Source of the DNA: a virus
Strand: one strand, 5' to 3'
DNA: 64,000 nt
IMG/VR virus record: IMGVR_UViG_3300025117_000038
Span: 53,396-117,395 of that record
Shown: piece by piece, positions 62,885-63,642 of the stretch
How positions within the stretch are numbered: the first letter of the stretch is position 1
Layout: each line of letters starts with the position of its first letter
Made by a program: the position numbers and the translations under genes
The notes under the pieces: generated by a model
What the model was told of the DNA's origin: nothing
Database searches by the model: none
Seen by the model: only the letters and a program-made list of their open reading frames with translations

Positions 62885-62986
62885 AGGATAATACAAACGG
62901 TATCTTGGCGCAGAGGATGATAAAAAGAAACCATTAAACAAATGAAAAATTATTAAATTTCATATAAAGATTTTTATTGTAGCACA

Positions 62987-63062
62987 TTCAAGGCGGGAAA
63001 TGGTGGTTCGAATCCCCTCTCTCCTTAATTGGGGAGATAATATAATGGATAGTATACCCGCC
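62987..63062 (+). tRNA. Circularly permuted tRNA, anticodon UCA
   Basis: The 3' half comes first: anticodon-loop end and stem TTCAAG-GCGGG (62987-62997), T arm with TTCGAAT (63007-63013), acceptor strand TCTCTCC (63018-63024). A TTAATT linker follows, then the 5' half: acceptor GGGGAGA (63031-63037), TA, D arm ATAT-AATGGATA-GTAT, A26 and CCCGC (63057-63061). The acceptor pairs at 7/7 (one G-U); the anticodon stem CCCGC/GCGGG is perfect, and C62/G992 extends it. Joined, the 7-nt loop is CTTCAAG, or CGTCAAG if the GTC after the 5' half is kept; both give anticodon UCA, a UGA reader. The T stem has a bulged U. No CCA is encoded. Confidence 0.75.
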
Positions 63063-63265
63063 GTCTACACTTGAAAGGACGAAACTTAAAAGATGAAATT
63101 ATGGGGATGAAGTAATGGTAACTTATTGGGCTTTCTGGTTTGTTCACTCAAACTGGTACAATCCCAAGTTGTGAGGTTCGATTCCTCACTCCCCATTATT
63201 TCAATGCATCATAGAGTGTACTGATGAGTCCGATGCAAAAGAGAATTGAGTGCATCTGAAAACGG
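63058..63265 (+). ncRNA. Dispersed hammerhead-ribozyme core sequences
   Basis: GTC (63063-63065) ends the permuted tRNA's 5' half and is followed by TACACT (63066-63071), which pairs perfectly with AGTGTA (63215-63220). CTGATGA (63221-63227), the hammerhead core, follows at once, then GTCC and GATGCA. Two candidates complete the core: TGCATC-T-GAAAACGG (63251-63265), whose ACGG pairs with CCGT at the cleavage side in the correct strand order, and GGAC-GAAAC (63077-63085), whose GGAC pairs with GTCC. Cleavage would fall after GTC at 63065. The loop of stem I would contain the tRNA at 63101. Confidence 0.55.
63101..63196 (+). tRNA. tRNA with a 25-nt hairpin insertion in the anticodon loop
   Basis: Acceptor ATGGGGA (63101-63107) pairs fully with TCCCCAT (63190-63196); TG; D arm AAGT-AATGGTA-ACTT; A; anticodon stem TTGGG (63126-63130) with CCCAA (63163-63167); T arm GTGAGG-TTCGATT-CCTCAC. 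The anticodon loop is 32 nt instead of 7. It holds an 8-bp hairpin CTGGTTTG-TTCACT-CAAACTGG. Removing 25 nt leaves CTTCAAT (anticodon UCA) or CTTTAAT (UUA), depending on the break. The acceptor helix extends outward by six more pairs (TGAAAT/ATTTCA) past one mismatch. No CCA encoded. Confidence 0.7.
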
Positions 63266-63419
63266 GGTGTAAGTATCTTCCATAGCAGAGGGGTGCAAAT
63301 GCACTATGCGTTTCAAACGGGTAATATAATCGGGTGCGTCCTCGCCCGAATGGATACGGCCTCACCATTCAATACGAATGGCTCGGACTACGAGAACCGA
63401 GGGATGCACTCAATTCTTT
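63240..63419 (+). ncRNA. 180-nt structured RNA closed by a 17-bp stem
   Basis: Bases 63240-63256 pair with 63403-63419 (14 perfect pairs from GAATTGAGTGCATC, then A-U, G-U, A-U). Inside are hairpins CGGGTG-CGTCCT-CGCCCG (63331-63348), CCATTC-AATAC-GAATGG (63365-63381) and CTCGG/CCGAG (63382-63401). It separates two tRNA genes. Bases 63251-63256 can also pair with GATGCA at 63232, so two folds compete. I recognise no Rfam-type class; it is too small for a group I intron. Confidence 0.6.
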
Positions 63420-63430
63420 ATTTCGATTAT

Positions 63431-63587
63431 GCCCTTGTAGCTCAGTGGTAGAGCGCATCGTATGTATGGTATATGTACATATATCGTAGATACAGTCGTC
63501 CCGTAAGACGACAGGTGGTCAAAGGTAGGGAAGTAGTAATGCATGACGAAACCCTATCAAGCGTAGGTTCGAATCCTATCGAGGGCA
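63431..63587 (+). tRNA. tRNA interrupted by about 100 nt
   Basis: 5' part: acceptor GCCCTTG, TA, D arm GCTC-AGTGGTA-GAGC. 3' part: T arm GTAGG-TTCGAAT-CCTAT and acceptor CGAGGGC plus A73; the acceptor pairs 7/7 with one G-U. Between D and T arms are about 108 nt instead of about 22. The insert has a perfect 14-base palindrome (63470-63483), hairpin GTCGTC-CCGTAA-GACGAC (63495-63512), stem GGTAGGG/CCCTATC (63524-63530 with 63552-63558) and GACGAAAC (63545-63552), a hammerhead-like phrase. No simple anticodon stem or anticodon can be assigned. Confidence 0.6.
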
Positions 63588-63642
63588 TCCTTTTTAAGAT
63601 AATATAAATTAAATCTGATACAAAACCTTACAGGAGAATGTT

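What the first reader, a model, noticed from the sequence alone, without database searches (positions are those of the whole stretch)
62980..63590. Possible integrated system: ribozyme-matured rearranged tRNAs for UGA decoding
Three consecutive tRNA genes are each abnormal at the anticodon (permuted, 25-nt insert, about 100-nt insert), and hammerhead phrases occur in or between all three. At least one reads UGA. TGA is a rare stop here, seen mainly in short overlaps. Delaying tRNA maturation could time a late switch in UGA reading, or hide tRNAs from host anticodon nucleases.
Basis: inference. Interest (0 to 1): 0.75.

Follow-up and report, generated by a model that had tools for sequence, protein, structure and literature searches.

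The report
Permuted phage tRNA with embedded hammerhead ribozyme
A bacteriophage carries a tRNA gene written back-to-front whose cut point in the anticodon loop coincides with the predicted cleavage site of a rare rearranged self-cutting RNA (hammerhead ribozyme), and the same phage encodes enzymes able to rejoin such cut ends, so it may build tRNAs by ribozyme cutting plus ligation; nothing supports the proposed reading of the UGA stop codon.

Summary
The core of the finding is real; its UGA reading is not supported. At 62990-63065 lies a circularly permuted tRNA (3' half, 6-nt loop, 5' half, broken in the anticodon loop). The same search found none in 20 Mb of simulated sequence or 0.88 Mb of other viral DNA. 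The scattered "hammerhead phrases" resolve into one complete hammerhead in the rare S-G-C block order, with every core residue, 7-bp stem I, 4-bp stem II, a 4-nt linker and a 6-bp helix joining the outer ends of stems I and II. Such a hit did not occur in 12 Mb of simulation. Predicted cleavage (63065^63066) falls inside tRNA1's anticodon loop, and the ribozyme encloses tRNA2. The phage encodes RtcB, which joins hammerhead-type ends, plus a DRB0094-family RNA ligase and RlaP. I propose ribozyme cutting followed by RtcB sealing. What makes the other end is unknown, and stem III has only 2 canonical pairs. UGA reading is unsupported: tRNA2's anticodon is ambiguous, 25 of 99 ORFs end in TGA, and no readthrough signal exists. 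As precedent, 13 classical hammerheads sit just 5' of tRNA genes in viral contigs, 10 predicted to cut within 1 nt of the tRNA's first base. No close relative was found; no activity was tested.

The parts
62990..63024 (+). tRNA1, 3' half (placed first): anticodon-stem 3' strand GGCGGG 62992-62997, T arm 63002-63018, acceptor 3' strand TCTCTCC 63018-63024 (register uncertain by 1 nt)
   Evidence: permuted-tRNA search: unique in the genome, 0 in 20 Mb simulated and 0 in 0.88 Mb real viral loci; fold
63025..63030 (+). 6-nt loop TTAATT joining acceptor 3' and 5' strands of the permuted tRNA
   Evidence: direct reading
63031..63065 (+). tRNA1, 5' half: acceptor GGGGAGA 63031-63037, U8, D arm 63040-63055, anticodon-stem 5' strand CCCGCC 63057-63062, loop G-U-C ending at the predicted cut
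63063..63072 (+). hammerhead S block: G16.2 U16.1 C17, predicted cleavage 63065^63066, stem I 5' strand UACACUU 63066-63072
63073..63076 (+). linker GAAA between stem I and stem II strands (about 3 nt in known type-SGC hammerheads, PMC10085705)
   Evidence: direct reading
63077..63085 (+). hammerhead G block: stem II strand GGAC 63077-63080, GAA 63081-63083, A15.1 C15.2 63084-63085
63101..63197 (+). tRNA2, enclosed between G and C blocks; 32-nt anticodon loop (63131-63162) with an 8-bp hairpin insert, 25 nt more than a normal loop; acceptor helix extended outward by GAAAUU/AUUUC
   Evidence: cloverleaf MFE, z = -3.4; splice registers
63205..63210 (+). helix joining the outer ends of stems I and II, 5' strand UGCAUC
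   Evidence: 6 Watson-Crick pairs with 63232-63237; in the MFE fold
63214..63231 (+). hammerhead C block: stem I 3' strand GAGUGUA 63214-63220, CUGAUGA 63221-63227, stem II strand GUCC 63228-63231
63232..63237 (+). helix joining the outer ends of stems I and II, 3' strand GAUGCA
63240..63419 (+). structured RNA of unknown function closed by an 18-bp helix, between C block and tRNA3
   Evidence: z = -4.7, 0 of 200 shuffles as stable; no Rfam family
63431..63587 (+). tRNA3: acceptor, D and T arms intact, about 86 extra nt between D arm and variable loop; insert boundaries unresolved
   Evidence: Rfam tRNA 43.9 bits; insert folds with z = -3.8

Best explanation
The locus is a small phage tRNA transcript in which tRNA1 is circularly permuted and a type-SGC hammerhead is built around it. 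Shown from sequence: the permuted tRNA; all hammerhead blocks, including the helix that joins stems I and II; the predicted cut inside tRNA1's anticodon loop; tRNA2 folded as the connector between the G and C blocks; RtcB, a DRB0094-family RNA ligase and RlaP in the same genome. Inferred: the nascent RNA folds so that tRNA1's anticodon stem stacks on a very short stem III. The hammerhead cuts after GUC (63065), leaving a 2',3'-cyclic phosphate on tRNA1's 5' half. A second cut in the leader just upstream of 62990 (agent unknown) leaves a 5'-OH on the 3' half. RtcB joins them, and the UUAAUU loop is removed by RNase P- and RNase Z-like processing to give a mature tRNA. If the loop is 7 nt this tRNA carries anticodon CUC (Glu codon GAG). 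Inserts in tRNA2 and tRNA3, and in tRNA-Tyr and tRNA-Arg elsewhere in the genome, would need similar cut-and-seal processing by an agent not identified.
For: Permuted tRNA: 1 in the genome, 0 in 20 Mb simulated, 0 in 0.88 Mb other viral loci. Type-SGC hammerhead with stem I >=5, stem II >=4, linker 1-6 and joining helix >=4: 1 in the genome, 0 in 12 Mb simulated and 0 in 0.42 Mb other viral DNA; even without the joining helix about 5e-5 expected in 600 nt. It is the top-scoring hammerhead of any block order in 117 kb and matches the published architecture, including linker and joining helix (PMC10085705). The cut falls in the anticodon loop. RtcB PF01139 E=3.5e-72 with NHFIE, HSGSR and SHGAGR motifs intact; DRB0094 ligase above its NCBIfam cut-off, the family enriched 140-fold in phages with tRNA-associated theta ribozymes (PMC10879173); RlaP. 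Independent precedent: 13 type-I hammerheads upstream of tRNAs in viral contigs, 10 predicted to cut within 1 nt of the tRNA's first base.
Against: Single sequence: no relative of this locus was found, so there is no covariation. Stem III has only two canonical pairs; its completion by the tRNA anticodon stem is inferred, and the helices of tested type-SGC ribozymes are required for cleavage. About 120 nt rather than 0-44 nt separate the G block from the joining helix. No ribozyme or nuclease site was found for the 5' end of tRNA1's 3' half. The T stem has a U51.C63 mismatch and a one-nt register slip. The related phage G001 has RtcB but ordinary tRNAs, and RtcB is in 633 phage records, so RtcB is not diagnostic. 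No expression data.
Confidence: 0.52

Rival explanations
1. tRNA1 is a fossil: two tandem copies of one tRNA gene lost their outer halves, leaving a 3' half next to a 5' half, not matured. The hammerhead is a genuine phage ribozyme that trims the tRNA2/tRNA3 transcript, and its position in the old anticodon loop is coincidence.
For: Tandem duplication with loss of outer halves is a usual proposed origin of permuted tRNA genes (established knowledge). T-stem mismatch and register slip. Phage hammerheads upstream of tRNAs do exist.
Against: Acceptor 7/7, D stem 4/4 and anticodon stem 6/6 are all still paired; decay would break them in a compact genome. The cut lies in the loop, not at tRNA2's 5' end as in the other phage hammerheads.
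Confidence: 0.22
2. The tRNAs are real but spliced by a protein endonuclease plus RtcB, as archaeal permuted and intron-containing tRNAs are; the hammerhead is not the cutter.
For: Several other tRNA genes in this genome have anticodon-loop or D-loop inserts without any hammerhead nearby, so another cutter must exist if they mature. RtcB is present.
Against: Reading the insert junctions by hand gave no bulge-helix-bulge motif in tRNA1, tRNA2, Arg or Tyr. No splicing-endonuclease gene was recognised, although not every ORF was searched. It leaves the hammerhead at the junction unexplained.
Confidence: 0.17
3. One reading: the rearranged tRNAs decode UGA late in infection, and slow ribozyme maturation times the switch.
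For: One splice register of tRNA2 gives anticodon UCA. Theta ribozymes are linked to suppressor tRNAs in recoded gut phages, but 99.7% of those read UAG.
Against: Other registers score equally. 25/99 ORFs end in TGA and extensions past TGA are short (median 5 codons), as for TAA. Genes are intact in the standard code. Nearest tRNA bodies to tRNA2 are Met, Val and Gly, not Trp or a suppressor.
Confidence: 0.04
4. Chance: neither the hammerhead nor the permuted tRNA is real.
For: Only one sequence; stem III is weak.
Against: Simulations: none in 12 Mb (hammerhead with joining helix) and none in 20 Mb (permuted tRNA), and the two coincide.
Confidence: 0.05

Closest known systems
Type-SGC (non-circularly permuted) hammerhead ribozymes, HRIMA-1 and variants (PMC10085705)
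   Same: S-G-C block order, all core residues, stems I and II joined by a short linker, extra helix joining the outer ends of stems I and II
   Different: The known ones were found chiefly in metatranscriptomes and no tRNA association is described in the sections read; stem III here is 2 bp plus the stacked tRNA anticodon stem; G-to-C spacing is larger and holds a whole tRNA
Circularly permuted tRNA genes of red/green algae and archaea (PMC3978253, PMC3218864)
   Same: 3' half precedes 5' half with a short loop joining the acceptor strands; ligation across the break is needed
   Different: Those use a bulge-helix-bulge cut by a protein endonuclease; here the break carries a hammerhead site, in a phage
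Theta ribozymes of gut phages (PMC10879173)
   Same: Small self-cleaving ribozyme tied to phage tRNA maturation; DRB0094-family RNA ligase enriched in the same phages
   Different: HDV-like fold, cuts at the tRNA 3' end, no tRNA interruption or permutation
Type-I hammerheads immediately 5' of phage tRNAs (seen here in IMG/VR contigs)
   Same: Hammerhead whose predicted product end is a tRNA end, virus-encoded
   Different: Classical block order, cut at tRNA nucleotide 1, intact tRNA

Membership tests
type-SGC hammerhead ribozyme | core residues CUGANGA, GAA, A15.1-U16.1, G10.1-C11.1, H17 | tested here: met
   all present at 63064-63065, 63080-63084, 63221-63228
type-SGC hammerhead ribozyme | block order S-G-C with stems I and II formed | tested here: met
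   7-bp stem I, 4-bp stem II
type-SGC hammerhead ribozyme | short linker and helix joining the outer ends of stems I and II | tested here: met
   4-nt linker; 6 Watson-Crick pairs
type-SGC hammerhead ribozyme | stem III formed | tested here: inconclusive
   two pairs (A-U, C-G), then mismatches; completion by tRNA1's anticodon stem is inferred
type-SGC hammerhead ribozyme | self-cleavage after H17 | not testable with these tools
   needs an in vitro assay
type-SGC hammerhead ribozyme | covariation of stems among relatives | tested here: inconclusive
   no relative found
circularly permuted tRNA gene | 3' half before 5' half with acceptor, D, anticodon and T stems restorable | tested here: met
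   acceptor 7/7, D 4/4, anticodon 6/6, T 4/5
circularly permuted tRNA gene | bulge-helix-bulge at the break | tested here: not met
   junction read by hand: possible helices UGUAG/CUACA or UUCAA/UUGAA, bulges 2+9 or 8+0 nt, not 3-4-3
circularly permuted tRNA gene | joined mature tRNA in RNA data | not testable with these tools
   no RNA-seq available
UGA suppressor tRNA / recoded phage | UCA anticodon | tested here: inconclusive
   one of several equal splice registers
UGA suppressor tRNA / recoded phage | genes need UGA read as sense | tested here: not met
   standard-code ORFs intact, TGA a normal stop, no readthrough signal
theta ribozyme | HDV-like fold cutting at the tRNA 3' end | not tested
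   no Rfam ribozyme family matched; theta motif not searched as such

The most novel reading that the evidence does not exclude
A ribozyme-plus-ligase tRNA splicing system in a bacterial virus: a tRNA's own anticodon stem completes a hammerhead that cuts its anticodon loop, and phage RtcB seals the halves, so tRNA splicing runs without a protein endonuclease at that site. The same ligases may serve the other interrupted phage tRNAs.
Probability: 0.4. Interest if true: 0.92.

Novelty: new variant of a known kind. Interest (0 to 1): 0.74.

Why it matters
Known tRNA splicing uses a protein endonuclease or a self-splicing intron. A hammerhead cut repaired by RtcB would be a third route and could give natural type-SGC hammerheads a biological role. 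It would also be the first permuted tRNA gene known to me in a virus of bacteria. Together with hammerheads found at the 5' ends of other phage tRNAs, it suggests phages use small ribozymes widely to mature tRNAs without host RNase P.

Tried and rejected
Exact 19-nt S-G string in IMG/VR: one hit, inside a coding sequence, chance. Relatives through the RuvB-like and RlaP proteins: none. Relatives through the DRB0094 ligase: 18 distant loci with mostly ordinary tRNAs. Terminase gave one syntenic relative (G001, 65% identity), but its contig lacks this locus and its detected tRNAs are intact. T arm between G and C blocks in viral contigs: 11 hits, none SGC, but this exposed a hammerhead-tRNA-hammerhead array in L040. 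The stricter form in 257 Gb of cellular genomes: 0. tRNA3's GACGAAAC as a second hammerhead: rejected, no CUGANGA partner. tRNA3's insert related to an interrupted cluster tRNA (L010:5740-5900): weak similarity (2.4% of shuffles as good, T arm included), not claimed. Isotype from body similarity: no clear answer. Rfam at permissive thresholds: only the tRNA3 match above its gathering score. Literature searches found no report of phage permuted tRNAs or hammerhead-processed phage tRNAs in the held library; this is not proof of absence.

Full report
WHAT THE SEQUENCE IS. The window is the right part (53396-117395) of a 117,395-bp virus record. It is a tailed phage: its terminase is 31% identical to Bacillus phages Slash/Staley and 65% identical to one metagenomic relative, G001. 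Besides the three odd genes of the finding it has a main tRNA cluster at 23.8-30.4 kb on the minus strand with at least 14 tRNAs, some of them interrupted.

THE PERMUTED tRNA. 62990-63065 reads: anticodon-stem 3' strand GGCGGG, T arm, acceptor 3' strand TCTCTCC, loop TTAATT, acceptor 5' strand GGGGAGA, UA, D arm (ATAT-AATGGATA-GTAT), A, anticodon-stem 5' strand CCCGCC, GUC. A search for permuted tRNAs finds this one place in the genome and none in 20 Mb of second-order Markov sequence or in 0.88 Mb of other viral loci. Weak points are one T-stem mismatch and a one-nucleotide slip between T stem and acceptor.

THE HAMMERHEAD. Read separately, GGACGAAAC at 63077-63085 and CTGATGAG at 63221-63228 look like stray phrases. 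Read as blocks they form one ribozyme. S: G16.2 U16.1 C17 ^ UACACUU. G: GGAC-GAA-A15.1-C15.2. C: GAGUGUA-CUGAUGA-GUCC. Stem I is 7 bp, stem II 4 bp, the S-G linker is GAAA, and UGCAUC/GAUGCA closes the outer ends of the C block; the last helix also appears in the unconstrained fold. This is the architecture described for type-SGC hammerheads, including the short linker and the helix joining stems I and II (PMC10085705). It is the best hammerhead of any block order in 117 kb. With the joining helix required, 12 Mb of simulation and 0.42 Mb of other viral DNA gave none; without it, one hit in 12 Mb, about 5e-5 expected in a 600-nt region. The core positions agree with the hammerhead consensus. 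Stem III has only A15.1-U16.1 and C15.2-G16.2; the next S-strand bases (CCGCC) pair instead with GGCGG of tRNA1's 3' half. I infer that the tRNA anticodon stem stacks on, and so completes, stem III. This is unproven and is the weakest structural point.

WHY THE TWO BELONG TOGETHER. The predicted cut (63065^63066) lies in tRNA1's anticodon loop. The connector between G and C blocks is tRNA2, whose acceptor helix is extended outward by GAAAUU/AUUUC and so brings the two blocks together. Hammerhead products carry 2',3'-cyclic phosphate and 5'-OH ends, which RtcB joins (established biochemistry). The genome encodes RtcB at L009:4883-6037 (Pfam PF01139, E=3.5e-72, catalytic motifs present), a DRB0094-family RNA ligase at L010:544-1668 (TIGR02306, 176 bits against a cut-off of 151) and RlaP at L010:10343-11173. 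The same ligase family is enriched 140-fold in phages with tRNA-associated theta ribozymes. RtcB alone is not diagnostic: it occurs in 633 records of the phage collection and in G001, whose detected tRNAs are all intact.

PROPOSED MECHANISM. Shown: the parts above. Inferred: fold; hammerhead cut after GUC; an unidentified cut upstream of 62990; RtcB sealing; opening of the UUAAUU loop. If the mature loop is seven nucleotides it is GUC+UCAA, anticodon CUC, with a CCGCC/GGCGG stem. How tRNA2 loses its 25-nt hairpin insert and tRNA3 its ~86-nt insert is not known. tRNA-Arg (37-nt insert) and tRNA-Tyr (inserts in the anticodon and D loops, both ending CTTCAGTAA) in the main cluster show the same need without a hammerhead. 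That is evidence that a second, unidentified cutter exists, or that some of these genes are dead.

UGA. tRNA2 gives anticodon ACA, UCA, UUA or UUC in equally scoring 7-nt-loop registers, and UAC with an 8-nt loop. Of 99 ORFs of 120 aa or more, 25 end in TGA; the median in-frame extension past TGA is 5 codons, against 6.5 for TAA and TAG. tRNA body comparison with several hundred phage tRNAs gives no suppressor or Trp signal; it is weak for all three genes. The UGA switch is therefore not supported.

INDEPENDENT PRECEDENT. A scan for classical hammerheads upstream of T arms in IMG/VR gave 39 contigs; 13 sites form good type-I hammerheads, and in 10 the predicted cut is within one nucleotide of the tRNA's first base, mostly tRNA-Tyr. 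For the tRNA-His case the offset is +1, which would leave the G-1 that tRNA-His needs (inference). A further site in L040 (6483) also cuts at the tRNA start by eye, but ARAGORN missed that tRNA. A strict form of the pattern occurs 11 times in the viral loci and not at all in 257 Gb of bacterial and archaeal genomes. Other hammerheads lie in or near tRNA arrays in L027, L041 and L049. So phage hammerheads next to tRNAs appear real by sequence; the target differs in block order, in where it would cut and in the permutation.

VERDICT. A real and surprising arrangement: a permuted phage tRNA with a type-SGC hammerhead at its break, in a phage with RNA ligases. Confidence: permuted tRNA real ~0.95; hammerhead real ~0.85; functionally linked ~0.7; ligated to a working tRNA ~0.5; UGA decoding ~0.04.

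Noticed in passing
L040:6483 and 6633 (+); L051, L055, L056, L057, L063, L066, L068, L076, L084, L085 (positions): Classical type-I hammerheads directly 5' of phage tRNA genes, predicted to cut at tRNA nucleotide 1 with the acceptor 5' strand as half of stem I; mostly tRNA-Tyr, once tRNA-His with G-1 kept. No match to the strict pattern in cellular genomes and no report found in the literature held.
   Followed up: partly
L010:11825-11926 (+) (outside the window, G000:31825-31926); related RNA in L032 minus strand ending near 716: Miniature tmRNA of about 100 nt without a tag-peptide reading frame (Rfam tmRNA 49.8 bits) but with the G3-U70 alanine identity pair; a similar RNA lies in the related phage G001.
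   Followed up: partly
L010:5593-5718 (-), tRNA-Tyr(GTA): tRNA-Tyr with two inserts, one in the D loop (about 34 nt) and one in the anticodon loop (16 nt), both ending CTTCAGTAA.
   Followed up: partly
L010:4752-4863 (-), tRNA-Arg(TCT): 37-nt insert in the anticodon loop flanked by a short direct repeat (CTAAT); no hammerhead nearby.
   Followed up: partly
L010:5740-5905 (-) and L010:6020-6125 (-): Two more irregular tRNA-like genes: one with about 90 extra nt, one about 105 nt long with two T-arm-like hairpins; identities unresolved.
   Followed up: partly
window 63240-63419 (+): 180-nt strongly structured RNA (z = -4.7) closed by an 18-bp helix, between the hammerhead C block and tRNA3; matches no Rfam family.
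   Followed up: partly
window 62700-62890 (+): Possible small RNA gene: structured stretch ending in a terminator-like hairpin (GCGGTCAGACCGC then CTTTTT, 62866-62884) just upstream of the tRNA locus.
   Followed up: no
L009:4883-6037 (+), L010:544-1668 (-), L010:10343-11173 (-), L010:3324-3785 (-): RNA repair set in one phage: RtcB, DRB0094-family RNA ligase, RlaP, SpoU-type RNA methyltransferase.
   Followed up: partly
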